In this document: in pieces, positions 8,061 through 36,060 of the stretch | How positions within the stretch are numbered: position 1 is the first letter of the stretch | Layout of the letters: each line of letters starts with the position of its first letter | Source of the DNA: Solirubrobacterales bacterium | Lineage (GTDB): Bacteria > Actinomycetota > Thermoleophilia > Solirubrobacterales > 70-9 | Assembly (NCBI GenBank): GCA_020438425.1 | Contig: JAGQUQ010000006.1 | Location: 1-55,049, forward strand | Length of the DNA: 55,049 bases | Reading direction: 5' to 3' | Program-made: the position numbers and the translations under genes | The notes under the pieces: model-generated | What the model was told of the DNA's origin: nothing | The model's database searches: none | What the model saw: the letters and a program-made list of their open reading frames with translations, nothing else

Positions 8061-8163
8061 TTCCCGGTCGATGGGACTGCGAGTAATTACAGACTACATT
8101 GGGCCGGTTACGAGGTTCGGAATGGTTCTCGGAGAACCTTTTCCATCGAGCTCCTGCGCAGGG

Positions 8164-8346
8164 TCAGCCGGCGAAAACGACCACGGCCACAACTGCGACG
8201 ATCAACAGGTCGGCGATGATCACCCACTTGATCCAGGGCGGCATGCGGTCCCGGGTCGGCGCCGACTCGAGGCCTGAATCGACCGAGGACTCGGCCTGTT
8301 CGAACTCCTCGAATTCCCGCTTCAGATCTTCGGAGGATTCAGCCAT
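8164..8346 (-). CDS. Small tail-anchored membrane protein
   Basis: 60 residues: an acidic, helical N-terminal half (SSEDLKREFEEFEQAESSVD) and one C-terminal membrane segment (WVIIADLLIVAVVAVVVFAG) running to the last residue. This is a tail-anchored topology with the soluble part probably in the cytosol. The start lies 6 bp after the stop of the DUF4333 gene, so the two are likely co-transcribed. Function unknown. Confidence 0.6.
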   Translation of the reverse strand: MAESSEDLKREFEEFEQAESSVDSGLESAPTRDRMPPWIKWVIIADLLIVAVVAVVVFAG

Positions 8347-8352
8347 CCGGAC

Positions 8353-20863: not shown

Positions 20864-22804
20864 TCACGCTGAGCGGGGGGCCGTGAGCAGGACTCGGCAG
20901 GGGGCTCTTTTGAGGACGTAGGCGGTGATTGGTCCGATCTCGTCCGGCCGGTAGTCACCGATCCCGCCCAGGCGGGCACCGCCCTTGATCGGACTGGGCG
21001 GTTCCGCTCCCATCACGATCGCATCGACGCCAAGCCGGCGGGCGGCGAAAACGATGCCGGTCCCCTTCTTCCTGACCCGCTCGATCTCGACCCGGACCTC
21101 AACCCCTCCGTACTCCTCGGCCACTTCCCTGGCCCGCTTGGTGGCCCGCTGGGCCTCGTCGGCAACTTCCTCCGGCAGCGGATCCTTGATACCCCGGGCC
21201 AGGGGAATCTCGATCAGGTAGAGAATCGTCATCACGGCATGGGCGTCCTGCTCCTCCGGATCGCCCTCGGCCGCCATCCGGCCCGCCGTGGAAACGATGT
21301 CGTCATCGATCCGGGTGCCGAAGATCGGGACCAGGATGTTGTGGAAGTCGATCGACACCCTGGGCCGGGTCAGGGCCCGGGCTTCGACCGTGACCTGCCG
21401 GGTGAGGCTGATCTGCTCGACACCCTTGCGGTAGATCACGTACCCGACCAGACCAACCGCAAGCCAGCCCAGCCCGACCCATCGGGCCGAGTCATGAAAC
21501 ACCAGTACCGAAGCCAGGGCCAGGCTGCTGAGGACCGCCCCAACGACTGCGGTCAGTGGCCGGGAGGCACCAAGCACCGGCAGGTTGAGCGGCGCCCGGA
21601 ATGGACGTTCGGTTTCCGGTTGGCTCTTTCGAAGTTTCAGGACCGAGAGATGGGCAATCGTGATCGCCAGGGTTGCGCCGAAGGCGTAGATCCCGGCCAG
21701 GGCTTCGACGTCCCCGGTCATCGCCAGGCCGAAGACGGCCAGCGCGCAAAGAATGATCGCCTTGTAGGGGACCTCGTAGCGCCGCCCCAGTTGCCCCAGC
21801 CAGCTCGGGATCTGACGGTTGACCGCGAGGGTGTAGGTGTGCCGGGAAACCCCGAGCATGGCTGTATTGGCGGCCCATACCAGGGTGCCGGACGCGACGA
21901 TCGCGACCAGCCACTGCAGAGCATCCGACAGCCAGTCGGGGTCGAAAGCCTCGACCACCCCCAGTACCGGGGCTTCGATGAAGGTCGACCCGAGCTCGGT
22001 TTCCGGTCCCTGGGGACCGACGAAGACGGGTACCGCCATCAATGCCACCGCCGCCATCGCCGCGTAGAGCAGCGGAACGATCCAGATCGCCCTGGTCACC
22101 ACCCGGGTGAACTGCCGGGCGTTCAGATCGAGGTCGGGCACCAGGTTCGACACCGCTTCGATCCCGGCGTAGGCGAGCATCGCAAGCACTGTCGCGTAGA
22201 TCACATCGGTGGTCTCCGGCGTCACTCCGAGGTCTATGTGCCGGGTCAGCGCTTCCGGGTCCATCACCACGAAGAGGCCGATCACGATCACCAGAAGCTG
22301 GGTGAGCAGGTCGATCGCGGCGAGCCCGAGCAGAAACCGGGGTCGCCGGCGGGCTGGCACGTCAAGCGTGTTCAGGACCGTGATGTAGATGACTACGGCG
22401 GCGATTATCACCGGCACCCAGATCGTGTCGTGAATGTCGCCGGTGACCGGTCGCAGGTAATGCGGCACCGAAAGCACTGCCAGGGCGATCACGATCAGGT
22501 AATCGAGCAGGATCACCCAGCCGGCGACGAAGGCGACCAGTTCATTGAAGGCATGCCGCGCGTAGGAGGAGGAGCCTCCCCGTTCCTTCAGCATTGCGCT
22601 GCCCTCGAAGTAGGTGAAGATGGTCAGCACGAAGAGGACACCGGCCGCGACGAAGATCAGCGGTGTGAGCCCCAGCCCCTTCTTGGCGACCACGCCGAGA
22701 GCGAAGTAGATCGAGAAGCCGACCGCGGCGTAGGTCACGATCAGCAGCCACAAAGCTCCTGACTGGGGCGCCTTGTCCGGGATCCGCACATCGCGCATCT
22801 TCAT
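20864..22804 (-). CDS. APC-superfamily permease with C-terminal USP-like domain (second copy)
   Basis: 646 residues. Twelve or so TM segments occupy residues 1-470 (start LWLLIVTYAAVGFSIYFALG; APC block LKERGGSSSYARHAFNEL). Residues about 485-646 are a cytosolic universal-stress-protein-like domain with ILVPIFGTRIDDDIVSTAG and IVMGAEPPSPIKGGARLGGI. The TM1 unwound region (AVGFSIYFALG) and GGSSSYARHAF match the amino-acid/polyamine/organocation fold. It is a paralogue of the 634-residue permease at 23001. Co-transcription with two RCK proteins suggests cation coupling or K+ homeostasis, but the substrate is unproven. Confidence 0.85.
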   Translation of the reverse strand: MKMRDVRIPDKAPQSGALWLLIVTYAAVGFSIYFALGVVAKKGLGLTPLIFVAAGVLFVLTIFTYFEGSAMLKERGGSSSYARHAFNELVAFVAGWVILLDYLIVIALAVLSVPHYLRPVTGDIHDTIWVPVIIAAVVIYITVLNTLDVPARRRPRFLLGLAAIDLLTQLLVIVIGLFVVMDPEALTRHIDLGVTPETTDVIYATVLAMLAYAGIEAVSNLVPDLDLNARQFTRVVTRAIWIVPLLYAAMAAVALMAVPVFVGPQGPETELGSTFIEAPVLGVVEAFDPDWLSDALQWLVAIVASGTLVWAANTAMLGVSRHTYTLAVNRQIPSWLGQLGRRYEVPYKAIILCALAVFGLAMTGDVEALAGIYAFGATLAITIAHLSVLKLRKSQPETERPFRAPLNLPVLGASRPLTAVVGAVLSSLALASVLVFHDSARWVGLGWLAVGLVGYVIYRKGVEQISLTRQVTVEARALTRPRVSIDFHNILVPIFGTRIDDDIVSTAGRMAAEGDPEEQDAHAVMTILYLIEIPLARGIKDPLPEEVADEAQRATKRAREVAEEYGGVEVRVEIERVRKKGTGIVFAARRLGVDAIVMGAEPPSPIKGGARLGGIGDYRPDEIGPITAYVLKRAPCRVLLTAPRSA

Positions 22805-23004
22805 CCCGAATCACCTCCGGTCACCTTGCGCTGGACCATGTACCGGCCCACGCCGATCCCGATGAAGGCGAGCCCGATCAGGAAACCGATCGAAAGCGGA
22901 CCACCACCCTTGATCAGGGTCAGGACCAGGACCGCCACTCCGATCACGACATAGACCGCCGAGAAGACCCTGATCGAGCGGTCGTATGCCCCACCGCGCT
23001 TCAA
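22801..23004 (-). CDS. Small two-TM membrane protein between two APC permeases
   Basis: 67 residues with two hydrophobic segments (VFSAVYVVIGVAVLVLTLI and LSIGFLIGLAFIGIGVG) joined by KGGGP, and basic ends (MKRGGAYDR, MVQRKVTGG). It overlaps both neighbours by four bases, so expression is tightly coupled to the permeases. It may be an accessory subunit of one of them. No named family is recognised. Confidence 0.7.
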   Translation of the reverse strand: MKRGGAYDRSIRVFSAVYVVIGVAVLVLTLIKGGGPLSIGFLIGLAFIGIGVGRYMVQRKVTGGDSG

Positions 23005-24905
23005 TTCAGCTCCGCTTCCCGCACCGGGGCGCTTTCGACCGGACCAGGGTCCTCGGAAACCACGATAACCCGGCAGGGTCGTTCGCGAAGAACGGTTTCG
23101 AGCGTCTTTCCGTACTGGGGAACGCCGCCCCGGGAGCTCAGGCCGATCACGATCGCCGCCGCATTCGAGGTCCTCGCCTGCCGGGAGAGGAAGTAGCCCT
23201 CCTGGCCCGGACGAACCCGCTCCACCCGGCCGGAAACGCGAAGTCCGGCGATCAGCTTGGCCCGCTCGATCTTGCTCTGCGCCCGCTTCTCCTCTTCGAC
23301 CATCGAGCTCTCGAGTGGCAAGTGGGTCGGCACGGTGAGCAGCGCGGTGATGTGGATTCCGCGTCGACGGTCGGAGGTGAGCTTTGCCGCGGTAGCCATG
23401 ATGTCCTCCGAAAACGGCTGGTCAGCCGGAAAGGCAACGATCACGGACTTGTACTCGATCTCCTCGACCCCGAGCGGTTCCGGCAACAGCACCTTGACGG
23501 TGCCGGTCAGGGGCAGTTCCTGATGCCGCCGGTAGACCATGTATCCGACCAGACCAATCGCCAGCCAGACCAGGCCGACCCCGAGGGTTACGGGGTTCAG
23601 CGCCATGACCACCAGCCAGGCGAGGAAAGTACCCAGGCCGCCGAAGATCGCGGTTAGCGGAATCAGGGCGCCACGGAAGCGGAAATTCCCCCGGGGCATC
23701 CAGGCGCGTTCCTTGTCGGGCTGCTTCTGTCGCAGCCGGATCACCGCCGCGTGGGCGATGGTGAAGGAAAGCATGGCACCGAACGAGTACATGGTCGCCA
23801 GAAACGAAGCCTGACCGGGCAGCAGGGTGATGATCGCCAGGACCGCGAAGAAGATGATCGCGATGTACGGCGTCCGGTAGGTCGGGTGGATCTGCCGGAT
23901 CGCTTCCGGCAGCTGCCGGTACTGGCCCATCGAGTAACTGAGCCGGGACACACCGATCAGACCCGCATTTGTCGCGATAACCAGGATCACGGCCGCAAGC
24001 ACGCCGACATAGACCCTGAGCAGGTCGGTTAATCCGGTGGATAATCCGAGGTTCTCCACAATCCCCAGGATCGGATCGTCAGCGAAGGTCGTTCCCAGTT
24101 CGGTCACGTACTCACCGGCCTGGTTCATCTCGACCGGCATTGCGGAGAGGGCGACGATCGGAATGAACAGGTAAAGCCCCAGCACCGCAACGACGACCAG
24201 GGCCACCCCCTGGGGCACCGATCTGGCCGCGTCCTTCGCCTCTTCCGACATGTTGGAGATCGTTTCGATCCCGGTGTAGGCGATCATGCCGACCGCGATG
24301 CCCAGCGCGAAATCGGGCCAGGTCGGGGCAACTCCGATGTGAACGTTCGAGATCAGGACGTCGGTGTTGAAGACGAGGAACATTCCGATCGCCACCAGGA
24401 TCACCTGGGTCGCGAGGTCGGCGACGGCGAGGATGATGTTCAGCCGGGCCGACTCCTGGCCACCCCGGATGTTGAGCCAGGCGAGAAACACGATCACCGC
24501 AGCGCCGCCGATGATGTCACCGGGAGCGTGGCCGAGGGCCGGCCAGAAGACCGCCAGGTAATGCGGCACGAAGTAGGCCGAGATGGCGACCGTGATCGTG
24601 TAGTTCAGCATCTGCGCCCAGGCGGCGATGAAGCTGACCAGTTCGTTGAAGGCGTGCCGGCCGAAAGATGAGGATCCGCCGGCCTCCGGGTACATGACCG
24701 TCGCCTCGGCGTAGGTCGCGGCGGTGCAGATGAAGATCAGGCCGGCGATCATGAAGGCGACCGGAGTCAGCCCCAAAGCGAATGCCGCCGTGACCCCGAG
24801 CGCGTAGTAGATCGAGGAGCCGACGTTGCCATATGCGGCAGCGAAAAGGGCACCTGAGCCATGGATCCGGCTCAGGCTCTGATCACGCGGAATTCGTTCA
24901 GCCAA
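23001..24905 (-). CDS. APC-superfamily permease with C-terminal USP-like domain (first copy)
   Basis: 634 residues. TTG at 24905 is the only start after an in-frame stop just upstream. TM domain 1-470 has AAAYGNVGSSIYYALGVTAA and PEAGGSSSFGRHAFNELVSF. The cytosolic part has YKSVIVAFPADQPFSEDIMA, KRAQSKIERAKLIAGLRVSG and VIGLSSRGGVPQYGKTLETV, a USP-like fold. The G-S-S motif in TM1 and the tandem paralogue at 20864 suggest duplication. The operon also holds two RCK proteins. Substrate unknown; amino acid or cation. Confidence 0.85.
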   Translation of the reverse strand: MAERIPRDQSLSRIHGSGALFAAAYGNVGSSIYYALGVTAAFALGLTPVAFMIAGLIFICTAATYAEATVMYPEAGGSSSFGRHAFNELVSFIAAWAQMLNYTITVAISAYFVPHYLAVFWPALGHAPGDIIGGAAVIVFLAWLNIRGGQESARLNIILAVADLATQVILVAIGMFLVFNTDVLISNVHIGVAPTWPDFALGIAVGMIAYTGIETISNMSEEAKDAARSVPQGVALVVVAVLGLYLFIPIVALSAMPVEMNQAGEYVTELGTTFADDPILGIVENLGLSTGLTDLLRVYVGVLAAVILVIATNAGLIGVSRLSYSMGQYRQLPEAIRQIHPTYRTPYIAIIFFAVLAIITLLPGQASFLATMYSFGAMLSFTIAHAAVIRLRQKQPDKERAWMPRGNFRFRGALIPLTAIFGGLGTFLAWLVVMALNPVTLGVGLVWLAIGLVGYMVYRRHQELPLTGTVKVLLPEPLGVEEIEYKSVIVAFPADQPFSEDIMATAAKLTSDRRRGIHITALLTVPTHLPLESSMVEEEKRAQSKIERAKLIAGLRVSGRVERVRPGQEGYFLSRQARTSNAAAIVIGLSSRGGVPQYGKTLETVLRERPCRVIVVSEDPGPVESAPVREAELN

Positions 24906-24916
24906 AGCGCATCAAC

Positions 24917-25378
24917 TCAGCCTGCGCTGGTGGCAGACCTTCCCCAGGCCCATTCAAGGACCACCTTCAGTGAACCGTCCGGTGCCGTGTCAACCGTGAT
25001 CGGCACCGGCATCGCCCTTCGCATCTCGCTGATCAGATCACCGCCGTCCTCGGTTTCGAGCACGAAGGTGGCCTGGTCATTGGATCGCTCGACCGAGACG
25101 ACCTTGCGGACCGACTGAAGCCCGCGCAAAGCGGTTTCGGCCACCGCAGCCATCGCAAGCTCCGGCAACGGTGAAACGCTGACACCGACCTCTCCCCTTG
25201 ACGCGGACACCGGGGGCACGTCGGGAGCGCTTGCGGGCCGGGGCGCAAGGGCTTCGACCGCGGACACCAGTTCCTGGACCCGATCGGCCAGGGCCTGGAC
25301 CTCGAGACTGACCCGGCCTACTGAAGCACGCAGGTCATCGATGACGGCTGGATCCGTCTGTTCGGATTCTGAGCCCAT
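24917..25378 (-). CDS. Coiled-coil protein with a C-terminal domain shared with the protein at 34326
   Basis: 153 residues. The N-terminal coiled coil (DDLRASVGRVSLEVQALADR, VQELVSAVEAL) is followed by a Pro/Ala linker and a ~75-residue domain from VSPLPELAMAAVAETALRGL through LISEMRRAMPVPITV. The same pattern (PL-x-[ED]L, E-x-AL, LIS-x-[ML]RR-x-x-P) closes the protein at 34326-34859, so the two are homologous. The predicted alternation helix-strand-strand-helix-strand suggests a ferredoxin-like fold. First gene of the six-gene APC/RCK operon, 11 bp before the first permease. Function unknown. Confidence 0.65.
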   Translation of the reverse strand: MGSESEQTDPAVIDDLRASVGRVSLEVQALADRVQELVSAVEALAPRPASAPDVPPVSASRGEVGVSVSPLPELAMAAVAETALRGLQSVRKVVSVERSNDQATFVLETEDGGDLISEMRRAMPVPITVDTAPDGSLKVVLEWAWGRSATSAG

Positions 25379-25487: not shown

Positions 25488-27104
25488 TTACGAAGGGCTG
25501 TAGATCTGCGCGGAGGTCACGCACCAGTTGTTGGAAGCAACCGGGTCGTTGACCTTCCAGCGTGACGAAACCAGGATCCGGTCACCGTTGTCGAGCTGGA
25601 TGAAGAGCATGCCGTTGTTCGGCAGGCGCATGACCAGCGGGCCGGTTCCCTGATTGACCTTGAAGTCTTCCGAACCCTCGCGCGTGTAAACGCTGCCACC
25701 GACCGCCGAATCCACGATCAGGCGGCGGTAGCCGTTCGGACCGGCCTGGCAGATGGCCTGGACGTTGCCGAGATCGGGGAAGTCGACGTTACTCACCGTG
25801 TTGGCCGGAGTGGCGTTGGCCTCGCCCCGCCAGACGACCTGGACCGAACGCGCCATCGGGTCGGTCAACTGGTCGGTCTGGGTGCGGAAGGTCGCCTTCA
25901 CGTGGCAGTAGGAACTGCCGGGCCGGCTGAAGTCCCAGACCCAGTCAAGATCGAAAGTCGTCGGAGGTGCGAGGGAATCGCCACCCGGACCATCGATCGG
26001 TCCGCGGTCGGAGATGATGCCCTGGAAGGTGCCGGTCGAGTACTTCTCGGTCGGACCGAACTTGTTCATTCCCTCGCGGAAATCCGGGCCGGAACCTTCG
26101 GTGTACTTGGCCTCACGAACCGCCTTCTCCCAGCCCTTGTCGTGATCCCAGTTCTTGTAAGTCCAGGTCATCATCGCGCTCTCGCGGCTGACATCCGACG
26201 GGTAGAAACGCACCCACTGCTGATAGGGGCTGCAGACAACTTCGCCGTAACCGATCCCGGGGGCGATGAATCCGCCGACCTGGCGTCCATCCCACTTGCC
26301 GCCGGTCCAGTCGACCGCGATCTTCTGGGTCAGCTGTCCGGTGGTCTCGACCGGCTTGGCGTTGCCGCCGCCACGACCGAAAGTCCAGTTCTGGACCGAG
26401 TACCTGTAAAGGCCCGTGGAGAGTTCCTGTCCGTTGAGGCGGACCCGGTACTTGCCGGGCCGGAGCTTGCCCTTGATCGGCAACTCGGCGAGGATCTGCT
26501 TGCTGCCGATTGAGGAAATCACCTGCTGGCTGATCACGCTGCCGCCGGGACCGATCAGAGAAACCCTGGTCCGGCCAACCTTGGCACGACGGACGGGGCG
26601 AAGGGCAAACCTCACCACTCCGACGTTGTCATTGACCCGGGTGCTGACCGGGATCGCCTTCAGCGGAAGGCTCGGGGTCGTGAACCTCCAGGTCTTCGAC
26701 TTCGAGACCCTCCGGTTGCAGCGACCGGGCTTGCTCGCGGTCACCTTCACCTGGTACTTCCCGGACGTCATCCTCCGGTGAACGTTCATCCGGATCAGGG
26801 TTGTGCGACCGGAAGCCATCTTGCCGACGATCCGACCCCTGGCAAAGGTCTTGTTGCCGCGCATCACCCGGACCATGGCCCCACGGACGGAACCCTTCGG
26901 GTTCACGTAGATCCAGGCGTAGCCGTCCTCGAGCAATCCGGTCGGGTCATGGCTGCTCAACTTGATGTTGATCGGCAGGGTCGAGCAGGGTCCTTGACGC
27001 TTCTTCTTGCCCGCGGCGCCCGAAGCAGCCGGCATCGCGGCCAGGGAAACACCCAGACCGACGATCAAAAGGGCTGTCGCTATGCGTCGAAACACAGGAA
27101 ACAT
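25488..27104 (-). CDS. Secreted beta-rich protein, function unknown
   Basis: 538 residues from ATG at 27104, chosen because AGGTGAG precedes it; an in-frame ATG at 27140 has no such site. The signal peptide is FRRIATALLIVGLGVSLAAMPAASGAAG. Residues ~30-240 read as two or three beta-sandwich domains with lysine/arginine-rich strands (SGRTTLIRMNVHRRMTSGKY; GKLRPGKYRVRLNGQELSTG). The C-terminal ~300 residues have many aromatic residues and three or four cysteines (VCSPYQQWVRFYPSDVS, YCHVKATFRTQ, NWCVTSAQIY). It follows the glycan operon after 74 bp on the same strand and may be part of it. No family recognised. Confidence 0.65.
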   Translation of the reverse strand: MFPVFRRIATALLIVGLGVSLAAMPAASGAAGKKKRQGPCSTLPINIKLSSHDPTGLLEDGYAWIYVNPKGSVRGAMVRVMRGNKTFARGRIVGKMASGRTTLIRMNVHRRMTSGKYQVKVTASKPGRCNRRVSKSKTWRFTTPSLPLKAIPVSTRVNDNVGVVRFALRPVRRAKVGRTRVSLIGPGGSVISQQVISSIGSKQILAELPIKGKLRPGKYRVRLNGQELSTGLYRYSVQNWTFGRGGGNAKPVETTGQLTQKIAVDWTGGKWDGRQVGGFIAPGIGYGEVVCSPYQQWVRFYPSDVSRESAMMTWTYKNWDHDKGWEKAVREAKYTEGSGPDFREGMNKFGPTEKYSTGTFQGIISDRGPIDGPGGDSLAPPTTFDLDWVWDFSRPGSSYCHVKATFRTQTDQLTDPMARSVQVVWRGEANATPANTVSNVDFPDLGNVQAICQAGPNGYRRLIVDSAVGGSVYTREGSEDFKVNQGTGPLVMRLPNNGMLFIQLDNGDRILVSSRWKVNDPVASNNWCVTSAQIYSPS

Positions 27105-27178
27105 GATCTCACCTGGCTCTAAACCCATTATCAAGGCCAAGTAGCGGCCAAATCGAATCGGGCGGGGAGTGAATCCGG

Positions 27179-28609
27179 CTACTCGCCACTGGCCGAATCG
27201 GCCTGCTGCTCGGTTCCGACTTCGGGAGCGGCACCGGACTGGTAGAAGATGACATCCGGCTCGGAGGTCCCGTTCAGCCAGGCGAGCTCGGTCGCCTGAG
27301 TCTCATCCGGGAGCGGCACCAGGGCCACGTTCTCGGCCAGTTCCTGGGAGCGGGAGAGGCTCTGGACCAGGAATTCATTGATGTCCTGATCCTTCATGTT
27401 CTTGTAGTTGATGGTCAGCAGCAGCTGACGGGCCAGCGGGTAGGTGGCGTTGGTGACCGTCGCCTGCGAGGGGAAGATGCATTCCGGCCTTGCGAAATCG
27501 TTCGAGGCGCTCACTTCCATCGGTCGCAACTGCTCTTCGAAGGCTTCGTAGTAGGAAAAGCGGAAGAGTCCGAGCGTGCCGCGCATCTCGGCCAGACGGC
27601 GCAGGGCCGCCCGGTTCTGGTTCACGTAGCGGCGGGCTGCGGGCAGCGACTTCTCGAGGTTCTCGAGGTTCTTCTCGGCCTTGGCCAGCTTGGCGCGGTC
27701 GCGGGCCTGGTCTTCCGGCGGACGTTCGTCGGCGATGCCCTTGGCCACCTCTGCCCTGGCGTCACGAACGGCCCGGCGGTTCTCCGCCAGGGAGTCGAGA
27801 ATGCCCTGGTAGACCTGCCTCGAGCGCTCGAACTGGGCCGCAGCGCGGAAGTCCCGGTTACTGCCGACCACCGCGCGCCTCACACCGGCGTCGTCGGGGT
27901 AAGCCTGATAGTCGCTGCGGAAGGAGAGCATGGTCGGCTCGGGATCGCCGAGCACGTACTGGCCGAAGAAGCTGAAGAGATTCGAGTCCTCGTCGGGGCC
28001 GGCGACCTTCATCCGCGGCTCGTTGAGGTCACCGCCAAGGTCATGCCCGTAACCGACCTGGCTCCAGCTGTTGATGTCCGAACCGGCCCGGAAGATGTTC
28101 CGGACTTCTTCGAAGCTGAGGCAGTCGGTTCCGACATCGGTTTCGTTCTTGATTGCCAGAACGACGGCATCCGAGGCAATCTGGAACTGAACCGGCTGGA
28201 TCCCGTTGGCGATGCACTTGCGGTACTCGGCTTCTGAAATCGGCCGGGCCGAATCGACTATGTCGGCGTTGCCGGCGCAGAACTCCTCGAAAGCCTGGTT
28301 CTCTCCCTGCTCTTCGACGGTGATTGTGGCGGTGCCGCCGGCACCGTTATACGCCTTGACCAGACTCGGGGTGAGAGATCCCTGGGCCTTGCCGACGACG
28401 CGGATCGTGCCGGCTTCGCGCGGAGTGGGCTTGGTGTTCTGTTTCGATGACTTGCCCGACTCCGGCGGTACGAAGATTGCCTCGGAGCCTGACGCACCGG
28501 CCGATTCGGGGGCTTCGTCGGGATTCACGCCACAGCCGGTTACGAGCAAGGCAATGATCGCCGCTCCGCAGGCGAGTCCGGCACCCTTCTTCACGAAAAC
28601 ACGGCTCAC
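27179..28609 (-). CDS. PstS-like substrate-binding lipoprotein with a coiled-coil insertion
   Basis: 476 residues from GTG at 28609. Lipobox VTGC is at about 23-26. The phosphate-binding-protein fold is seen in GTIRVVGKAQGSLTPSLVKAY, CAGNADIVDSARPISEAEYR, DAVVLAIKN, FEEVRNIFRAGSDINSWSQV and TYPLARQLLLTINYKN. Residues ~255-341 are a charged helical hairpin (EVAKGIADERPPEDQARDRA, KNLENLEKSLPAARRYVNQN) inserted just before the GTLGLFRFSYYEA strand, where PstS normally continues directly. No pst transporter genes are nearby. Its place as last gene of the glycan operon suggests a surface-assembly or ligand-sensing role rather than phosphate import. Confidence 0.8.
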   Translation of the reverse strand: MSRVFVKKGAGLACGAAIIALLVTGCGVNPDEAPESAGASGSEAIFVPPESGKSSKQNTKPTPREAGTIRVVGKAQGSLTPSLVKAYNGAGGTATITVEEQGENQAFEEFCAGNADIVDSARPISEAEYRKCIANGIQPVQFQIASDAVVLAIKNETDVGTDCLSFEEVRNIFRAGSDINSWSQVGYGHDLGGDLNEPRMKVAGPDEDSNLFSFFGQYVLGDPEPTMLSFRSDYQAYPDDAGVRRAVVGSNRDFRAAAQFERSRQVYQGILDSLAENRRAVRDARAEVAKGIADERPPEDQARDRAKLAKAEKNLENLEKSLPAARRYVNQNRAALRRLAEMRGTLGLFRFSYYEAFEEQLRPMEVSASNDFARPECIFPSQATVTNATYPLARQLLLTINYKNMKDQDINEFLVQSLSRSQELAENVALVPLPDETQATELAWLNGTSEPDVIFYQSGAAPEVGTEQQADSASGE

Positions 28610-29871
28610 AGTCCACCTCCGACGGTATTGCCAGCGGCACTGCCGGACTGGACCTGGGCGTTGTCGCCACCGGTCTCCGGACCTTCGAGTCCGACCTGGC
28701 TGAGCGGCGGATCCTTGTAGATCTGGGGCAGTGAAATCACTTCGAAGTCATCGAGATTGAGCCAGTCGAGTTCGTCCCCCCGAATCAGCTTGGGTGAGGT
28801 ACCAAGCGGCGCGTAAAGGCTGGGCACAGCGGCCCGGTCGACCACGATCGCCCCGTAGGTCCGGAGTGCGGTGAGGATCGCGTCAGCGGAGCGGCGGCGC
28901 TGCCCCTTCAGGCTGCGGATCTTCTTCTCGTTGATGGTCACATCGGCACGCAGGCGGATCCTCGCTCCGGCCGGGAGCGACTTGCGGTCGCCGACTCCGT
29001 CGGTGACCGAGGCGGGCTGGACGAAATTGCGGCGTGCCAGGCCGGGAATCGAGATCGCCAGGGCATGGCTGATCTCGCCCCGCTCCAGCTCTTCCGGGCC
29101 GACCACTCCGGCAAACAGCGGCAGCCCCGAGCCACGCGCACCAACCGCCCGCTCCGGGTCGATGCTGACCGGATTGCTGAAGCCGGGTCCATCAAGGGTC
29201 CAGGCCTTGCCGAACTGGTAGGAGATCGTGCCGTCGCCCTCGCGGCGGGCCCGCCAGAAGTCGTATCCCATGCCGTTCTCACGGTCGATCACGCTGAGCC
29301 AGCCGTCATAGCGCGGGTCGGGAGTGGTGTTGGCGGGAATGTTCAGGCTTCCCGGTACCTTGGGGTCGGCCGAACCGCACTTGGACTGGCGGCAGACCAG
29401 CTTCGTTGTGACCGAATCATTGGTATTGGCCGCGACGATCAGCGGAGCCCAGACCTGGGAGTTGATGAAGATGCCGTCGTCGACGATCTTGCGAGTGAAG
29501 GTGACCACGCCTTCCCGGTCCGGCACCTCGTTCACGGCGCGTCGCTGGGTGGCCAGTTCGAGCATCCGGTCGGAGTTGTCAGCCACCGGCAGGCCCTCGG
29601 CGGTCGTATTCCAGGGGCTGTCGGCCGAGAAAAGCCGGCCTTCGGCGACCGGATCGGTGCCGGCGGTCACGGCCGAGCCGGTCCCCGGTTCTGTTTCTCC
29701 GGTGGTTTCATTGGCCGTTGCCACCGTGTCTCCGGTGGCGCCGGTCTCCCCCGTCGTCGATTTGGCCTGGTTGTCACCCGAGTTGCCGTTGTCGGAATCG
29801 TTCGAACCGCAGGCGGCAACCAGCAGGCCGAGCATGGCCGTGAAGGCGACAACGAGCAACCAGCGCTTCAT
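28606..29871 (-). CDS. Secreted lipoprotein of the glycan operon, function unknown
   Basis: About 421 residues from ATG at 29871 (MKRWLLVVAF); a start at 29886 is possible. The lipobox is VAAC. A Ser/Thr/Gly/Asp-rich linker of ~60 residues is followed by a globular domain beginning GRLFSADSPWNTTAEGLPVA, with VCRQSKCGSADPKVPGSLNI, RYDGWLSVIDRENGMGYDFW, GLPLFAGVVGPEELERGEIS and ILTALRTYGAIVVDRA. The SPWN start and the DRENGMGYDFW block recur in actinobacterial secreted proteins near polysaccharide genes, as far as I recall. A glycan-binding or glycan-modifying role is inferred. It overlaps the next gene by GTGA. Confidence 0.65.
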   Translation of the reverse strand: MKRWLLVVAFTAMLGLLVAACGSNDSDNGNSGDNQAKSTTGETGATGDTVATANETTGETEPGTGSAVTAGTDPVAEGRLFSADSPWNTTAEGLPVADNSDRMLELATQRRAVNEVPDREGVVTFTRKIVDDGIFINSQVWAPLIVAANTNDSVTTKLVCRQSKCGSADPKVPGSLNIPANTTPDPRYDGWLSVIDRENGMGYDFWRARREGDGTISYQFGKAWTLDGPGFSNPVSIDPERAVGARGSGLPLFAGVVGPEELERGEISHALAISIPGLARRNFVQPASVTDGVGDRKSLPAGARIRLRADVTINEKKIRSLKGQRRRSADAILTALRTYGAIVVDRAAVPSLYAPLGTSPKLIRGDELDWLNLDDFEVISLPQIYKDPPLSQVGLEGPETGGDNAQVQSGSAAGNTVGGGL

Positions 29872-29885
29872 CCCGCCCTCAGGCA

Positions 29886-31844
29886 CTACTCGCCCTCCAG
29901 AGTCGGGGCCGATGAGCTGCCGTCATTCGGCTCCACCGTGCTGCCGCTATTCGAAGGTGTGGGTGAAACCGGGGTGACGTCGGTCTCCGATTGAGACGGA
30001 GTGGTCAGGTCGGGCCCGTTCGGGTTGAGCGGAGCCGTCGGAGTGACCGGGTTCGGGCTGGTCCGGGGCTGGTTCGATTCCTGCTCATCGCCTTCATCGG
30101 GTGGCTTGGTCTCGGAGATCTCAACCAGGACGTAACGGTCGGTGCGGAAGATCGGCTGGAGCCCGGCTTCACCGCCCTCGACGGCGGTCGGCCACTTCTT
30201 GGCGATCTGATCGCCGGCCCGGCTGGTGGTGATCAGCATGTAGCGAATCTGATCGTCCGGGTTTTCTGCGTTCCAGGTCCACGGATCGTCAATCGCCGAC
30301 TGCCAGTCGTCTTCGCCGGCGTCCACCCGGTCAAAGAAGTTCTGGGGGCGGCCGGAAGTGATCATCACTCCATAGTTGAAGTTCTGATCGACGGCAATTG
30401 ACCTTTCGTTCTGCGGAATTTCGTTGTTCACGTATCTGGCCATGGCCAGCTCCGGATCGATTCCGACGGTGTAACCACCGATGGAGCTGGTTCCTTCCTG
30501 ACTGTCACGGGTGTCAACCCATCGGGTGAACGCCTCTGCCTGGTTCTGAAACCGGTAGTCCTGCATGGCATTCCACGAAAGCGGGATCGCGACAAGCAGT
30601 CCGATCACCGCGATAACCGAGGCAACCACTCCCCATCCATCACGGCCAAACCACGCCACAGCGGCGAGGGCGAAAACTGCGAACACGATTCCGTAAGCGA
30701 GGTCGAAGAGGTTTGCCTGATCCGCAATCACGGCTCTTCCCACCGGTGTTGCGGCAATGACTATGCCTACGGCAAGAAGTGCCCAGGCAGTCGAGTCCCC
30801 CTTGACAAAGCCGCCGACGACCAGAAGAACCAGAGCGACGAAGGCAAGAGGGGCAACGCCGAGGGTGACCTCGAACAGATCGCCCATGCTTCCCCAGAAG
30901 TCAGCCTGAATTGCCTGCAAAGCCCCGGTCGTGTTGACCTGGATGACCCCGTCCTGAAGAGATACCCAGGCAAACGGATCACCCAGGAGCACCCAGTTCA
31001 TCAGACACCAGAACAACAGGGCGTAAACGAACGGGGTGAGAAAGAGAAGCAACGTCGAGCGGATCTTCAACCCGTCATGAATCTTGGTTGCACTCAGAAT
31101 CAGGAACCCGATGACGAACCCGAGCCCGATCACCATGTACCCGTAGTCGACCATGACGGCCAGTCCCACCGCCAGACCAGCCCCGGCAAGATAGCGGGTC
31201 TGCTCGGTGGCGGACCAGGAAATCATCGATGAAAGTGCCACACCCAACATCACCAGACCCAGAATCTCGGTCGATCCGTTACAGGCGTAGTAGACGAACA
31301 TCGGGTTGAGGCCGAAAAGAACCAGCACCACAATGCGGAACGCGAGGTTGAAATCACAATTGCGCATCATGGTGTTCAGCGAAGCCATCAACAAGCCGGC
31401 GCTGAACGCGCTTAGAACCGGTATGGCAACAAGCGAAGTCGCAAGCGGCTTGACCAGTGTCAGCGGCATGTACATGATCGACACGAAGGTGCCCGCATCC
31501 AGACCGACCGCCGCAAGACGCGGCGGATCGTTCCAGAAGACCATGTAGGCATCGTTCAGCTTGTTGAGGGCGACGAAGTTGACGATCCGTCCATCGGTCA
31601 GGAGGAAATAGCCGATCACGCCATACACCAGCGCGAAGAGGGCGAAGACAATCGTGCTTTCCCAGGTTGCCCTCGGGGCTTCGGGGCTGAAAGGACGGGG
31701 CTCGGGCGGAACCTCGTTGATGTAGGAGGCGATCTCGGGGTCTACATAGGTCCGACGAACCTGCCGGGTCCTCACCTCTTCCCTGACTGCGGCCGTGCCG
31801 CCGTCCTCGATGACCGGGTTCACGTCTACACGTTCGTCGGCCAT
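29886..31844 (-). CDS. Polytopic membrane protein, GT-C glycosyltransferase-like
   Basis: 652 residues. A ~65-residue cytosolic N-terminus (RRTYVDPEIASYINEVPPEP) precedes about ten to twelve TM segments (70-440) and an extracytoplasmic domain (440-560: FTRWVDTRDSQEGTSSIGGY, QNEKSIAVDQ-like block, RYMLITTSRAGDQIAKKW). The last ~80 residues are a disordered Pro/Asn/Thr tail. The arrangement of a long first loop with acidic residues (LNDAYMVFWNDPPRL) resembles GT-C-fold transferases using lipid-linked sugars, but the catalytic Asp is not certain. Its start overlaps the MshEN-GT2 stop by one base (TGATG), implying the two work together. Confidence 0.7.
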   Translation of the reverse strand: MADERVDVNPVIEDGGTAAVREEVRTRQVRRTYVDPEIASYINEVPPEPRPFSPEAPRATWESTIVFALFALVYGVIGYFLLTDGRIVNFVALNKLNDAYMVFWNDPPRLAAVGLDAGTFVSIMYMPLTLVKPLATSLVAIPVLSAFSAGLLMASLNTMMRNCDFNLAFRIVVLVLFGLNPMFVYYACNGSTEILGLVMLGVALSSMISWSATEQTRYLAGAGLAVGLAVMVDYGYMVIGLGFVIGFLILSATKIHDGLKIRSTLLLFLTPFVYALLFWCLMNWVLLGDPFAWVSLQDGVIQVNTTGALQAIQADFWGSMGDLFEVTLGVAPLAFVALVLLVVGGFVKGDSTAWALLAVGIVIAATPVGRAVIADQANLFDLAYGIVFAVFALAAVAWFGRDGWGVVASVIAVIGLLVAIPLSWNAMQDYRFQNQAEAFTRWVDTRDSQEGTSSIGGYTVGIDPELAMARYVNNEIPQNERSIAVDQNFNYGVMITSGRPQNFFDRVDAGEDDWQSAIDDPWTWNAENPDDQIRYMLITTSRAGDQIAKKWPTAVEGGEAGLQPIFRTDRYVLVEISETKPPDEGDEQESNQPRTSPNPVTPTAPLNPNGPDLTTPSQSETDVTPVSPTPSNSGSTVEPNDGSSSAPTLEGE

Positions 31845-34063
31845 CAGGCGGAACCCGCTCTCTTCGGAGTCGAAGAATGGGCGTGTTCGGCACCGCCGCC
31901 GAGGTCAAGCCCGTGCTCGGTCTTCTCCCAGTAGAAGGGATTCGTAATCAGTTGGCCAAAGCCCTTCCAGGCGGCGACAGACATCAATCCCCAGTAAAAG
32001 GGCAAGAACAGCGCGTAGGGGGCGAGGCCGTAATCACCGCGCCGGACCGAGGCGGCGAGCCCCAGATAGACGAAGACAAAATTGCCCAGAAAGAGCTGAG
32101 CCGCGGCAAGGAAGTACACCCACCCCGGAAAGAAATCCTGGATGATCCCGAGCTGGGTCAACGCGAACGCGGTGGTCAGGAACCAGAAGATCGGGTTGAT
32201 CAGGAACATGAAAGTTCCCCCGATCAGCAACTGGAACGAAAGAAAGCCCTTGAGGCCCACGTTGGAGAGGAAACGGAACGGGTTCCGCATGTAGACCAGC
32301 CAGGTCTGGAGGTAGCCCTTGATCCAGCGGGACCGCTGACGGATCCAGTTGGGGATGCTGGTATTCGCCTCCTCGTAAGTGGTCGAATCCATCATCGTGG
32401 TGCGATAACCGGCCTGGTGGAGCCGCACGCCGAGGTCGGCGTCCTCGGTCACGTTGTAGGGATCCCAGCCGCCCACTTCGACCAGTTCGTCACGCTTGAT
32501 GTGGTTTGAGGTGCCGCCCAGCGGGATCGGATCGCGGCGGGCGTCGAGCCCGGGCAGGACCAGGTCGAAGAGCATCGAGTACTCGATCGAGAACCAGCGG
32601 GTGAGGATGTTGGTCTGCTGGTTGAAGAAGTTGAGCTTCGACTGGATGCAGACGATCGAATCGTCCATGTTGTCGAACATGTGGACGGCCTTCTTCAACT
32701 GGAGCGGGTCCGGCCGGTCTTCGGCGTCATAGATGACGACATACTCGCCCTTGGCGCCGAGCAGACCGAAGTTGCATGCCTTTGGCTTGGTCTGCGGCTG
32801 CGAAGGAGGCACGACGATCGCATTGAAGTGAGGCGGAAGATCCAGATCCAGGATCGCCTGGATCGTTTCCTCATCGTCTTCCTCGCAGAGCAGGCGAACG
32901 TCGAGCTTGGTCTTCGGGTAGTCGAGCGACTCGATGCCGGCGACCAGGTACGGGATAACCGCGGCCTCGCGGTAGACCGGGACCAGCACGGTGTAGACCG
33001 GCAGGCTGCGTTCGTCCATCGCGGCGAGAGTTTCTTCGTCGGTGGGCACCATGTACCGGTGGCCGAGAGCCGCGTATCCGGCGATCAGCTTGTAGGCCGA
33101 GGTCAGGGTGTAGAAGATCGCGAGGATCGCGAACACGACTACCATTGTTGAAACCGGCTTCCAGATCAGGAATACGAGGAAGACCACCGCCAGCAGAATC
33201 AGGAAGAACTTCTGCCCTCCGCTCAAGACCTGATGGGCCGAACTGTCGGGGAACCGTTCCCGCAGACCAAGGGTCGCCGTCTCGGTGTAGCGCTCCTGGT
33301 TGATCTGGCGCTGAAGGCGGGAGATGTCGTTACCGGTCGCCAGGAACTGCTGGACCTTGCGCCCGGTGTAACTCTCTACTTCAGCTTCACCCTCGACCAG
33401 ACGGTCAGCCACGGCGAGGTAGATGCTCTCACCGTCGATCGCGATCGGGACGCAGTGGAGCCGGTGACACATCTCGTCCGGAAGCACGTCCCGGGGAGCC
33501 CGATCGGCGTCGTAATCGCTGAGATCCACGGTCGGCAGGTCCATCTGCTCGGAGAGAACCCGCAGCAGCTCGGTTTCCTCGAGCGCTCCACCATGAACCA
33601 GGACTTCACCGATCCGGCTTCCGGTGCGGTTCTGCTCGGCCACAGCGTCGGCAAGCTGTTCTTCGGTGACCAGTCCGCGGCTGGCGAGACTCTCACCCAG
33701 GCGGGGCGGAACGGCAAGACCGTGCTTGAGCAGGTCGTCGGCCGAGAATTCTGTTCCTTCCGGCCGGCCGTTGCCGGCAAAGAGCCGGTCGATCGCCAGG
33801 TCGAGTTCGGTCTGGTCGGCGAAGAGCCACCGGGTGTCGTATCCGGTCTGTTCACGAACCGCGCGATCGGCTGCCGGGTTGAAGGAAACCGGCCCGGCCA
33901 TCGTGATCAGCCCGCGGTCGAACTCGATCGGAACGATGTGGTACCGACGGCAGATCTCTACCGGCAGAAGGTGAGCCACCGCCGAGCTGAGCGTGACCAT
34001 GCGTTCGCTGACTCCGCTTGTGGAATCACGAACGAGCAACCTCTGGGCGACTGCTGTTGCCAT
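31844..34063 (-). CDS. MshEN-domain / family-2 glycosyltransferase fusion, c-di-GMP-responsive glycan synthase
   Basis: 739 residues. Residues ~30-95 resemble the C-terminal half of a GspE-N domain. Residues 121-144 (RLGESLASRG..EQ) and 150-173 (RIGEVLVHGG..EQ) are two 24-residue RLGxx..G..L..Q motifs five residues apart, the exact c-di-GMP-binding layout of MshEN. Two TM helices (~286-325) precede a GT2 domain with VLVPVYREAAVI, DAED (446-449), TED (539-541) and QRSRW (576-580), then four or so TM helices (~595-700). This is the BcsA/NfrB-like processive synthase plan with sensor and catalyst in one chain. A diguanylate cyclase gene is at 34942. The polymer made is unknown. Confidence 0.88.
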   Translation of the reverse strand: MATAVAQRLLVRDSTSGVSERMVTLSSAVAHLLPVEICRRYHIVPIEFDRGLITMAGPVSFNPAADRAVREQTGYDTRWLFADQTELDLAIDRLFAGNGRPEGTEFSADDLLKHGLAVPPRLGESLASRGLVTEEQLADAVAEQNRTGSRIGEVLVHGGALEETELLRVLSEQMDLPTVDLSDYDADRAPRDVLPDEMCHRLHCVPIAIDGESIYLAVADRLVEGEAEVESYTGRKVQQFLATGNDISRLQRQINQERYTETATLGLRERFPDSSAHQVLSGGQKFFLILLAVVFLVFLIWKPVSTMVVVFAILAIFYTLTSAYKLIAGYAALGHRYMVPTDEETLAAMDERSLPVYTVLVPVYREAAVIPYLVAGIESLDYPKTKLDVRLLCEEDDEETIQAILDLDLPPHFNAIVVPPSQPQTKPKACNFGLLGAKGEYVVIYDAEDRPDPLQLKKAVHMFDNMDDSIVCIQSKLNFFNQQTNILTRWFSIEYSMLFDLVLPGLDARRDPIPLGGTSNHIKRDELVEVGGWDPYNVTEDADLGVRLHQAGYRTTMMDSTTYEEANTSIPNWIRQRSRWIKGYLQTWLVYMRNPFRFLSNVGLKGFLSFQLLIGGTFMFLINPIFWFLTTAFALTQLGIIQDFFPGWVYFLAAAQLFLGNFVFVYLGLAASVRRGDYGLAPYALFLPFYWGLMSVAAWKGFGQLITNPFYWEKTEHGLDLGGGAEHAHSSTPKRAGSA

Positions 34064-34329
34064 CAGGACTTGAACTCCCTCACTTCAGTCGTGGTCTCGA
34101 CGACCTCGACTGTCTCCTGCCTGTCAACTCTGGCATTGCCGTTGCCATTGCCGTTGCCATTGCCGTTGCCGTTAGCGTCTCCCCGGCGGCGATCGCTGAC
34201 CAGCATCACGACTATGCCAGCCAGGAAAATGAAGAACGGAACGATCAGGAAGAACCCGAACATGATCGCGAATGCGATCAGAATGCCGACCACGAAGATC
34301 AGCGCGCCGAATACTCCTCCTCCGTTCAC
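34063..34329 (-). CDS. Small membrane protein with an Asn-Gly repeat
   Basis: 88 residues: two adjoining hydrophobic segments (VFGALIFVVGILIAFAIMFG and FLIVPFFIFLAGIVVMLV), then DRRRGDA, a low-complexity run of about six Gly-Asn dipeptides and an acidic tail ending EVVETTTEVREFKS. The GN run is encoded by an alternating GGCAAC/GGCAAT six-base repeat (about 34135-34175), so its length could vary by slippage. It overlaps the gene upstream by four bases and the synthase downstream by one. Probably an accessory membrane subunit of the glycan synthase; no family recognised. Confidence 0.65.
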   Translation of the reverse strand: MNGGGVFGALIFVVGILIAFAIMFGFFLIVPFFIFLAGIVVMLVSDRRRGDANGNGNGNGNGNGNARVDRQETVEVVETTTEVREFKS

Positions 34330-34859
34330 AGACCCGTGGGAGCGGCCACGCCGCTCTCGCGTCCGCCCATAGGTTGGGCCAGCGCGATCGTCACCGAGTC
34401 ACTTGAAGACTCGGTGACGTCAAATGCCACCGGCAGCTTGCGCCGGAGAGAGGAAATCAGTGAAACCCCTTCCCCGACCTTCGTGTCGATGGTTGCGGAA
34501 TCGCCGCGAAGTTCGCGAAGCGATGCCTCTTCCACCCCGTCAGTATTTGCCAGCGCGTCCTCGACGACGCGGGCAAGGCTGAGATCGTGAAGCGGACGGA
34601 CGATCACTCTGACGTCGCCACCGGTAGGCAGCTCGAAGTTCTCGTGCGTCGTCACAGTGTCCGAAACCGGAATGCCGGAACTGTTGACCGGGATTCCGGG
34701 CAGGGAGGCACCAGGCAACGTCGAAGCCTGAAAACCGGAACCCGGGTCCGAAAAGCTGCTGCCTCCGCTTCGAGCCTCCAGGGCATCGAGACGGGCGGAC
34801 AACTCCTCCCTCAAACTCCGAATTTCCTTGAGAATTTCTTTTGAACGGTCTTTTGCCAC
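34326..34859 (-). CDS. Coiled-coil protein with C-terminal domain shared with the protein at 24917
   Basis: 177 residues from GTG at 34859, chosen because GGGAG lies four bases before it. A longer frame to 35006 would overlap the divergent cyclase gene. The N-terminal coiled coil is DRSKEILKEIRSLREELSAR; a Ser/Gly/Pro linker follows. A ~75-residue domain runs VRPLHDLSLARVVEDALANT, ATIDTKVGEGVSLISSLRRK and LPVAFDV, homologous to the C-terminus of the protein at 24917-25378. First gene of the glycan operon. The domain is probably a small alpha/beta fold. A regulatory or scaffolding role is a guess from its position. Confidence 0.65.
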   Translation of the reverse strand: MAKDRSKEILKEIRSLREELSARLDALEARSGGSSFSDPGSGFQASTLPGASLPGIPVNSSGIPVSDTVTTHENFELPTGGDVRVIVRPLHDLSLARVVEDALANTDGVEEASLRELRGDSATIDTKVGEGVSLISSLRRKLPVAFDVTESSSDSVTIALAQPMGGRESGVAAPTGL

Positions 34860-34866
34860 CAGGCTC

Positions 34867-34879
34867 CCGATATTATCGG
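34867..34879. promoter_or_regulatory. Palindrome at the ribosome-binding site of the glycan operon
   Basis: CCGAT-ATT-ATCGG is a perfect 5-bp inverted repeat. On the minus strand its last bases run into the GGGAG ribosome-binding site of the GTG start at 34859. It may be an operator or a small hairpin that controls translation of the first operon gene. Confidence 0.4.
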
Positions 34880-34922
34880 CAAGTGCAGGATCTTCGAACG
34901 CTGAATGGTAAGCGCCTGCCGC

Positions 34923-34937
34923 AGTGAGTGGCTCACT
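34923..34937. promoter_or_regulatory. Palindrome between the diguanylate cyclase and the glycan operon
   Basis: AGTGAG-TGG-CTCACT is a perfect 6-bp inverted repeat with a 3-base centre. It is followed by CTATAG, a weak -10-like sequence for the cyclase gene starting at 34942. Its position between divergent genes suits a shared operator. Confidence 0.45.
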
Positions 34938-34941
34938 ATAG

Positions 34942-36060
34942 GTGAGGAACGGGAGAACCGTCAAGTACGAAAACCTGAGAATCCGGCCGTTCGGCATGCA
35001 CCCCACCCACCGGGGCTACCGGGACGTGACTCACTACCGGAAGAATCAGATCCGTTACGGGTTGGCGTTCGTGGCGATCACCGCTATCTGCTTCGCGGCA
35101 ACCCTGATCTCGTCCCCGGACACCGACTGGGCGCTTTACGCGGCAGGATGGGCGGTCGCCCTGGCCAGCGTCGGGCTCGCCCTCACCCATCCGGCCCTCT
35201 GGCTCGCGGCTCCCTTCGGCGCCCTGGGAGGAGCGATCCTGGTCCGCGCCGGCACCGACGGACTCGATGAAGGAATCGGCCCGTTGCTGCTGATCCCGGT
35301 TCTGGCGGTGGCCGTGTACGGATCCCGAAAGGCTCTGGTCGCGGTGATCGTCTGCGTGGTGGCGGCGGTCGTGGTCGCGCAGATAGCGACTGCCGAGGGC
35401 GAGGTCGGGCTGAATCCGGTCTGGAGGCAGGATCTTGTTCTGGCGGTCATGGCGACCGTGCTCGGAGTCGTAATCCAGGACCTGGTCACCCGCATGCGTC
35501 GCGAACGAAACCTTGCCGAGGAGCGGGGCCGGATCATCGAGGAGCTCGCCCTGACCGATCCCCTGACCGGAATTGACAATCGCCGCGGCTGGGAACGGGC
35601 GATCCAGCGATCGGTGGGCCAGGCCCGCCGCCACTCGCAGCCGCTCAGCCTGGCGATGCTTGATCTGGACCACTTCAAGAAGTACAACGACGCCCACGGC
35701 CATCAGGCCGGGGATGACTTCCTCCGCAGGATCGCCCTGAACTGGGAGGAGATGACCCGCATCGAAGACCACATCGCCCGCTACGGCGGCGAGGAGTTCG
35801 TGGTCACCCTCCCCAACACCGACCTCGAAGGCGCCAGGGTGATCGTCGACCGGCTCCGCGCCTCCCTGCCGCAGGAGCCGGAAGGGGATTCCGGCCGGCC
35901 GATCACCTGCTCGGCCGGAATTGCCGAGTGGAACGGCTCGGAAACGGTTCGCGAACTGGTCGGCCGGGCCGATCAGGCCCTGTACGCCGCGAAGGATGCC
36001 GGCCGGGACCGGACCGTGGTCCTGGAAACGCCGGAATCGCGGGCCGGATTCGCCGGCTGA
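34942..36060 (+). CDS. Membrane-bound diguanylate cyclase (GGDEF)
   Basis: 372 residues from GTG at 34942; ATG at 34996 is an alternative, and neither has a clear ribosome-binding site. About six TM helices lie within residues 36-182. A short helix (LVTRMRRERNLAEERGRIIE) connects to a GGDEF domain: LTDPLTGIDNRRGWE, MLDLDHFKKYNDAHGHQAGD, active site YGGEEF (G282-F286). R273-I-E-D276 five residues before it is an intact I-site for product inhibition. No EAL or HD-GYP domain. It should make c-di-GMP at the membrane. Divergent from the glycan operon, whose synthase carries the c-di-GMP-binding MshEN motif. Confidence 0.92.
   Translation: MRNGRTVKYENLRIRPFGMHPTHRGYRDVTHYRKNQIRYGLAFVAITAICFAATLISSPDTDWALYAAGWAVALASVGLALTHPALWLAAPFGALGGAILVRAGTDGLDEGIGPLLLIPVLAVAVYGSRKALVAVIVCVVAAVVVAQIATAEGEVGLNPVWRQDLVLAVMATVLGVVIQDLVTRMRRERNLAEERGRIIEELALTDPLTGIDNRRGWERAIQRSVGQARRHSQPLSLAMLDLDHFKKYNDAHGHQAGDDFLRRIALNWEEMTRIEDHIARYGGEEFVVTLPNTDLEGARVIVDRLRASLPQEPEGDSGRPITCSAGIAEWNGSETVRELVGRADQALYAAKDAGRDRTVVLETPESRAGFAG

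What the first reader, a model, noticed from the sequence alone, without database searches (positions are those of the whole stretch)
25488..36060. Putative locally c-di-GMP-controlled exopolysaccharide synthesis and surface-assembly system
Seen: a membrane GGDEF cyclase with active GGEEF and an intact I-site is divergent from an operon of overlapping genes. In order these are a coiled-coil protein, a small two-TM protein, an MshEN-GT2 fusion, a polytopic GT-C-like protein, a lipoprotein, a PstS-like lipoprotein and a secreted beta-rich protein. Known: MshEN binds c-di-GMP, and GT2 synthases such as BcsA and NfrB are c-di-GMP-activated. Inferred: a dedicated cyclase feeds the adjacent synthase, and lipoproteins receive or anchor the polymer outside. 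I know no described system with this set of genes.
Basis: partly seen in the sequence, partly recalled or inferred. Interest (0 to 1): 0.85.

Follow-up and report, generated by a model that had tools for sequence, protein, structure and literature searches.

The report
Actinobacterial surface-polysaccharide synthase gene cluster
A group of soil and water bacteria shares an uncharacterised set of genes that probably makes and anchors a sugar polymer on the cell surface; in the organism of this window it looks switched on by the signal molecule c-di-GMP, but a related group of bacteria kept the genes and lost that switch.

Summary
A divergent membrane GGDEF gene faces an overlapping operon that encodes a coiled-coil protein, a small hydrophobic protein, an MshEN-GT2 fusion, a polytopic membrane protein, two lipoproteins and a secreted beta-sandwich protein. 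The operon is a real module: GT2, membrane-protein, lipoprotein, PstS-like and beta-protein genes lie in this order on one strand in 39 of 56 relatives, most others being truncated or having the last gene inverted. They span Solirubrobacterales, Patulibacter, Svornostia, Nocardioides, Aeromicrobium and Jatrophihabitans. The MshEN domain has every scored c-di-GMP-contact residue and the GT2 has processive-synthase motifs, so a c-di-GMP-activated polysaccharide synthase is the best reading here.

Two inferences weaken. The cyclase neighbour occurs only in the window's clade (plus one EAL-GGDEF neighbour in Aeromicrobium). c-di-GMP control is not intrinsic: in Nocardioides the module persists with 0-1 of 6 binding residues, and 11 of those genomes have no GGDEF hit; the tree makes this a derived loss. 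Nocardioides operons start with a GH5 cellulase-family gene, which supports a polysaccharide product. No matching system was found in the papers searched. New variant of a known kind (synthase-dependent exopolysaccharide systems), not a new category.

The parts
34942..36060 (+). Membrane diguanylate cyclase: 5-6 hydrophobic segments, then a GGDEF domain (GGEEF, RxxD I-site); start GTG 34942 or ATG 34996
   Evidence: PF00990 9.6e-42; motif read from the sequence; hydropathy; next to the operon only in the window clade
34935..34964 (-). Promoter-like site TTGACG-18-TATAGT ahead of the operon, in the divergent region
   Evidence: 10 of 12 consensus matches; 2 sites found against 1.3 expected in shuffles, so suggestive only
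34326..34859 (-). Short coiled-coil protein with a C-terminal domain of about 90 aa shared with 24917-25378; likely GTG start 34859
34063..34329 (-). Small protein (88 aa) with one long hydrophobic stretch, probably two TM helices; a similar small protein precedes GT2 in Nocardioides
31844..34063 (-). MshEN-GT2 synthase, 739 aa; MshEN region, TM pair, GT2 domain, then TM helices; DAED, TEDADL and QRSRW motifs
33545..33703 (-). The two 24-residue c-di-GMP motifs of the MshEN domain (residues 121-144 and 150-173), five-residue spacer, 6 of 6 scored residues
   Evidence: motif definition PMC5013675
29886..31844 (-). Polytopic membrane protein (about 9-11 TM) with extracytoplasmic tail; possible GT-C glycosyltransferase
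   Evidence: PMT_2 E=0.0035, below cut-off; hydropathy; weak profile match; follows GT2 in nearly all relatives
28606..29886 (-). Lipoprotein family (426 aa) without Pfam or NCBIfam entry; marker of the module
27179..28609 (-). PstS-like lipoprotein: periplasmic-binding fold split by a coiled-coil insert of about 100 aa, invariant cysteines
   Evidence: PF12849 1.5e-15; profile matches 4jwo at 2.8e-45 in two halves; alignment
25488..27140 (-). Secreted tandem beta-sandwich protein (550 aa); the C-terminal domain 270-548 is the most conserved
   Evidence: AF2 mean pLDDT 86.5; Foldseek and VIA matches to MG/Ig-like arrays
24917..25378 (-). Paralogue of the coiled-coil protein, 109 nt beyond the operon's last core gene

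Best explanation
A synthase-dependent surface-polysaccharide module. The GT2 polymerises a sugar nucleotide at the inner face of the membrane and extrudes the chain. The polytopic protein and the small hydrophobic protein work with it in the membrane, the first perhaps as a GT-C that decorates the chain from a lipid-linked sugar. The two lipoproteins and the secreted beta-sandwich protein act outside the membrane in handling, trimming or anchoring the polymer. In the window's lineage c-di-GMP binds the MshEN domain and activates the synthase, and the divergent membrane cyclase is a likely but lineage-specific source. In Nocardioides the same machine runs without c-di-GMP binding. Shown by sequence: gene set, conservation, motifs, loss of the site. 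Inferred: polymer production, activation, and the roles of the accessory proteins.
For: Conserved gene order in 39 of 56 relatives, with different flanks outside the window clade. GT2 matches BcsA structures (9e-14) and MshEN matches the c-di-GMP-bound MshE domain 5htl (8.7e-15). Processive GT2 motifs are conserved throughout. All 6 scored c-di-GMP residues are intact in the window genus and several other Solirubrobacterales. Nocardioides, Aeromicrobium and Jatrophihabitans operons open with a GH5 gene (PF00150 6.7e-12) whose two catalytic Glu are kept in most, as hydrolases accompany other polysaccharide synthases (general knowledge: BcsZ with BcsA). A sister GT2-membrane-protein cluster carries a protein with a sub-threshold BcsB match. 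Precedent: NfrB is an MshEN-GT2 activated by DgcJ in E. coli (PMC8669469).
Against: No biochemical data and the polymer is unknown. The cyclase is not conserved with the module, and one relative from the window genus has no cyclase there. Nocardioides lost the c-di-GMP site, so control cannot be essential. Three core proteins have no functional family.
Confidence: 0.7

Rival explanations
1. The GT2 and polytopic protein make and flip a lipid-linked or short glycan that decorates the lipoproteins or the secreted beta-sandwich protein, so the product is a glycoprotein surface layer and not a free exopolysaccharide.
For: The most constant partners are three exported proteins; PMT_2, the weak match of the polytopic protein, is a family of protein O-mannosyltransferases. 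The GT2-membrane-protein pair also occurs without the lipoproteins.
Against: The GT2 has QRSRW and flanking TM helices typical of processive synthases, and its best solved relatives are BcsA. A GH5 hydrolase heads the operon in one clade.
Confidence: 0.17
2. A strictly local signalling pair: the divergent cyclase physically feeds this one synthase, as DgcJ feeds NfrB (an add-on to the main explanation, not exclusive with it).
For: Only 3 GGDEF domains were found in the 2.57-Mb assembly and one is the divergent neighbour; the arrangement holds in seven genomes of the clade. An EAL-GGDEF gene follows the module by about 57 nt in Aeromicrobium stalagmiti.
Against: One clade only, where flanking genes are partly syntenic too; other relatives with an intact MshEN site lack the neighbour. 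Svornostia has a GGDEF gene upstream but about 66-70 in its genome, so that is uninformative.
Confidence: 0.3
3. The PstS-like protein makes this a phosphate-sensing or phosphate-uptake locus with incidental glycosyltransferase genes.
For: PF12849 match and homology to phosphate-binding protein 4jwo.
Against: No PstCAB-type gene in the module; score far below the PstS family cut-off (99.1 against 206.6 bits); the SGT phosphate loop is not kept and a coiled coil is inserted; two better PBP_like_2 proteins exist elsewhere in the genome.
Confidence: 0.03

Closest known systems
NfrB-NfrA-YbcH with DgcJ, Escherichia coli (PMC8669469)
   Same: Membrane GT2 fused to an MshEN domain that binds c-di-GMP; activation by a particular membrane cyclase; a cyclase gene sometimes adjacent in Pseudomonas
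   Different: MshEN is C-terminal in NfrB and N-terminal here; NfrA is an outer-membrane barrel. None of the accessory genes match, and the host here is an actinobacterium
Bacterial cellulose synthase BcsA-BcsB-BcsZ
   Same: Processive GT2 motifs; c-di-GMP control; a cellulase-family hydrolase beside the synthase in the Nocardioides version
   Different: No PilZ domain and no BcsB in the module; CelA model score 76.9 against cut-off 699
MshEN domain of MshE/PilB/PilF (PMC5013675, PDB 5htl)
   Same: Two RLG...LxxxLxxQ motifs with a five-residue spacer, all scored residues
   Different: Fused to a glycosyltransferase instead of an ATPase (a fusion type already noted in PMC5013675); degenerate in the Nocardioides members
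PstS phosphate-binding proteins (PDB 4jwo)
   Same: Lipoprotein with periplasmic-binding fold
   Different: Coiled-coil insert, extra invariant cysteines, phosphate loop not kept, no ABC transporter genes in the module

Membership tests
MshEN c-di-GMP receptor domain | Two 24-residue motifs with a five-residue spacer, with R, G and Q contact residues in both | tested here: met
   Window 6 of 6 scored residues; Pfam 2.3e-24; motif from PMC5013675
MshEN c-di-GMP receptor domain | Actual c-di-GMP binding | not testable with these tools
   Needs purified protein
Processive GT2 synthase (BcsA/NfrB type) | DxD-like, TED and Q(Q/R)xRW motifs with flanking TM helices | tested here: met
   DAED, TEDADL and QRSRW (one relative, L136, departs at DAED); hydropathy
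NfrB equivalog | Score above the curated NCBIfam cut-off; MshEN at the C-terminus | tested here: not met
   51.4 bits against 1170; MshEN is N-terminal
Cellulose synthase BcsA/CelA | CelA model cut-off and PilZ domain | tested here: not met
   76.9 against 699.1 bits; no PilZ match
Active diguanylate cyclase | GG[DE]EF catalytic motif and RxxD I-site | tested here: met
   GGEEF and RIED in the translation; PF00990 9.6e-42; activity itself not tested
Local cyclase-synthase pair (DgcJ-NfrB type) | Cyclase consistently linked to the synthase gene | tested here: not met
   Adjacent in the window clade only, plus one EAL-GGDEF neighbour in Aeromicrobium; gene linkage is not required in E. coli either
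Local cyclase-synthase pair (DgcJ-NfrB type) | Physical interaction and specific requirement | not testable with these tools
   Needs pull-down and mutants
GT-C glycosyltransferase | Recognisable GT-C domain | tested here: inconclusive
   PMT_2 18.0 bits, cut-off 26.1; one of 22 relatives matches; hhalign probability 11% over 73 columns; no PDB sequence match
PstS phosphate-binding protein | Family cut-off and phosphate loop | tested here: not met
   TIGR02136 99.1 against 206.6 bits; SGT loop not kept
MltA-like lytic transglycosylase (for the 426-aa lipoprotein) | MltA fold or profile similarity | tested here: inconclusive
   The six top VIA rows are MltA or related putative transglycosylase entries, but Z is only 3.2-4.2 with rmsd above 6 A; hhalign finds nothing against MltA or 3D domains

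The most novel reading that the evidence does not exclude
An undescribed actinobacterial exopolysaccharide system with two unclassified exported protein families, one perhaps a new glycan- or wall-acting lipoprotein fold. It moved from Solirubrobacterales-type ancestors into Nocardioidaceae and there lost its second-messenger input while keeping the receptor domain, so the MshEN domain was retained for a different purpose or left as a constitutive scaffold.
Probability: 0.35. Interest if true: 0.7.

Novelty: new variant of a known kind. Interest (0 to 1): 0.55.

Why it matters
It points to a widespread, uncharacterised surface-glycan pathway in soil and water actinobacteria, with three exported protein families whose biochemistry is unknown, and cultured hosts (Nocardioides, Patulibacter, Svornostia, Aeromicrobium) in which to test it. 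The same operon occurs with an intact and with an erased c-di-GMP site, so it offers a natural comparison for how a synthase loses second-messenger control.

Tried and rejected
Fold of the 426-aa lipoprotein: Foldseek found nothing at E below 1, VIA gave weak MltA similarity, and profile comparison with E. coli MltA and actinobacterial 3D domains was negative, so I make no MltA claim. Pfam scans of all members of the three orphan families found nothing consistent, except MG2 in 5 of 40 beta-protein members. PDB sequence profiles for the membrane, lipoprotein and beta proteins: no real hits. RNA element around the operon: none in Rfam. Enrichment of GGDEF genes near the GT2 outside the window clade: not credible, since the genomes with a nearby GGDEF are mostly rich in them. 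A degenerate GH5 in N. psychrotolerans first suggested a pseudo-enzyme, but most relatives keep both catalytic Glu. Paper searches for Nocardioides, Solirubrobacter or actinobacterial MshEN exopolysaccharide systems found no description of this gene set; the library is open-access only, so absence is not proof.

Full report
What is there. The minus strand from 34859 to 25488 holds seven genes that overlap or nearly touch, and a divergent GGDEF gene starts at 34942 or 34996. Pfam finds MshEN (2.3e-24) and GT2 domains (1.5e-21) in the 739-aa protein, a PBP_like_2 domain in the 476-aa lipoprotein, and GGDEF (9.6e-42) in the divergent gene. The cyclase has GGEEF and an RxxD I-site (read from the sequence). 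The 426-aa lipoprotein, the secreted 550-aa protein and the polytopic 652-aa protein have no accepted family assignment; the last has only a sub-threshold PMT_2 match.

Is it a unit? A search of 299 genomes of the class found GT2 relatives in 26 and lipoprotein relatives in 45; the strong lipoprotein hits mostly lie a few kilobases from the GT2. A scan of 84,980 species genomes with the lipoprotein profile gave 60 loci: Solirubrobacterales, Patulibacter, Svornostia, many Nocardioides, Aeromicrobium, Pimelobacter, Jatrophihabitans. Of the 56 that carry the module, 39 have GT2, membrane protein, lipoprotein, PstS-like and beta protein in this order on one strand; six have the beta protein inverted nearby; four have the first four genes and no detected beta protein; six are cut by contig ends and one is rearranged. 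The genes flanking the window operon are not shared outside its clade, so the module is discrete. A small hydrophobic protein precedes GT2 in Nocardioides as well.

What the synthase is. Sequence search against solved structures places residues 120-250 with MshE (structure 5htl, 8.7e-15) and PilB/PilF, and residues 294-649 with BcsA (9e-14). The catalytic motifs DAED, TEDADL and QRSRW are conserved. MshEN binds c-di-GMP through two 24-residue motifs separated by five residues (PMC5013675); the window protein has them at 121-144 and 150-173 with all six scored contact residues. NfrB, an MshEN-GT2 of E. coli, is activated by c-di-GMP from DgcJ (PMC8669469), so the regulatory idea has precedent and is not new in itself.

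Loss of the switch. I scored six contact positions in 46 relatives and the window. The window genus and three further Solirubrobacterales score 6; Svornostia and two others 5; most Patulibacter and Aeromicrobium stalagmiti 4; Nocardioides, Jatrophihabitans and one Aeromicrobium MAG 0-1. One locus with masked bases (L113) is not informative. In the genomes searched, 11 Nocardioides have no GGDEF domain at E 1e-10, while all those scoring 4 or more have 2 to 66 (rank correlation 0.55, but the genomes are related, so this is descriptive). A tree of the GT2 domain nests the Nocardioides-Aeromicrobium-Jatrophihabitans sequences inside the Solirubrobacterales ones, next to Svornostia (support 99/95), and Aeromicrobium stalagmiti branches first. 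Intact motifs in several outgroup GT2s make loss the simpler reading. Some Nocardioides with a degenerate site still encode GGDEF proteins, so the loss is not only a consequence of losing c-di-GMP.

The cyclase. The divergent cyclase is found in the window and six relatives of the same clade, two of which have a longer form with an insert. It is absent at that place in a relative whose GT2 is 72% identical (L069). Aeromicrobium stalagmiti has an EAL-GGDEF gene directly downstream. So a dedicated cyclase is plausible in the window lineage, and it is not part of the conserved module.

The product. Nocardioides-type operons open with a GH5 gene that keeps the NEP and ELG glutamates in most members. 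A sister GT2-membrane-protein cluster in other actinobacteria carries a protein with a sub-threshold BcsB match (0.00047), and another a GH3. These favour a polysaccharide, perhaps a beta-glucan, but do not identify it.

The outside proteins. The PstS-like protein keeps the binding-protein fold in two halves (4jwo, 2.8e-45) with a coiled coil of about 100 residues between them, but lacks the SGT loop and has invariant cysteines, so I read it as a scaffold or binding protein and not a phosphate importer. The beta protein is a confident tandem array of beta sandwiches like macroglobulin or Ig domains. The 426-aa lipoprotein has a confident core model (pLDDT 90 or more for 263 residues) with no clear structural match. 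Their roles are inferred from location only.

Verdict. Observation confirmed, interpretation partly supported. The finding is a conserved, apparently undescribed exopolysaccharide-type module, with c-di-GMP control intact by sequence in this lineage and lost in another.

Noticed in passing
24917-25378 and 34326-34859: Two paralogous small coiled-coil proteins bracket the operon on either side; both are present in the window genus and close relatives and were not detected in Nocardioides, which has a different coiled-coil-like gene between the membrane protein and the lipoprotein.
   Followed up: partly
51947-53527: A GH5 (cellulase-family) gene in the same window, about 16 kb from the operon, a distant homologue (about 26% identity) of the GH5 genes that head the Nocardioides operons.
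   Followed up: partly
L073 (G618) and L136, Svornostia abyssi: A genome with about 66-70 GGDEF domains in 5.1 Mb; a GGDEF gene and an OmpR-type regulator lie just upstream of the module.
   Followed up: no
L080 (G544:C81) 6373-8424 and 17102-19168: Two copies of the MshEN-GT2 gene, each followed by the membrane-protein gene, within about 13 kb of one contig; the lipoprotein lies on another contig.
   Followed up: no
L095, L098-L100, L102: A sister cluster in other actinobacteria pairs a GT2 that aligns only outside the MshEN part and the membrane protein with a protein family that in one member weakly matches BcsB; the four of these genomes that were counted have 0-2 GGDEF domains.
   Followed up: partly
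L162-L165: Distant relatives of the 426-aa lipoprotein family occur outside the module, for example in Arthrobacter and elsewhere in Svornostia, so the family is broader than this system and has no Pfam entry.
   Followed up: no
20864-24905: Two adjacent amino-acid permease-like genes, the second with a C-terminal universal-stress-protein match, directly downstream of the locus; syntenic in the window clade only.
   Followed up: no
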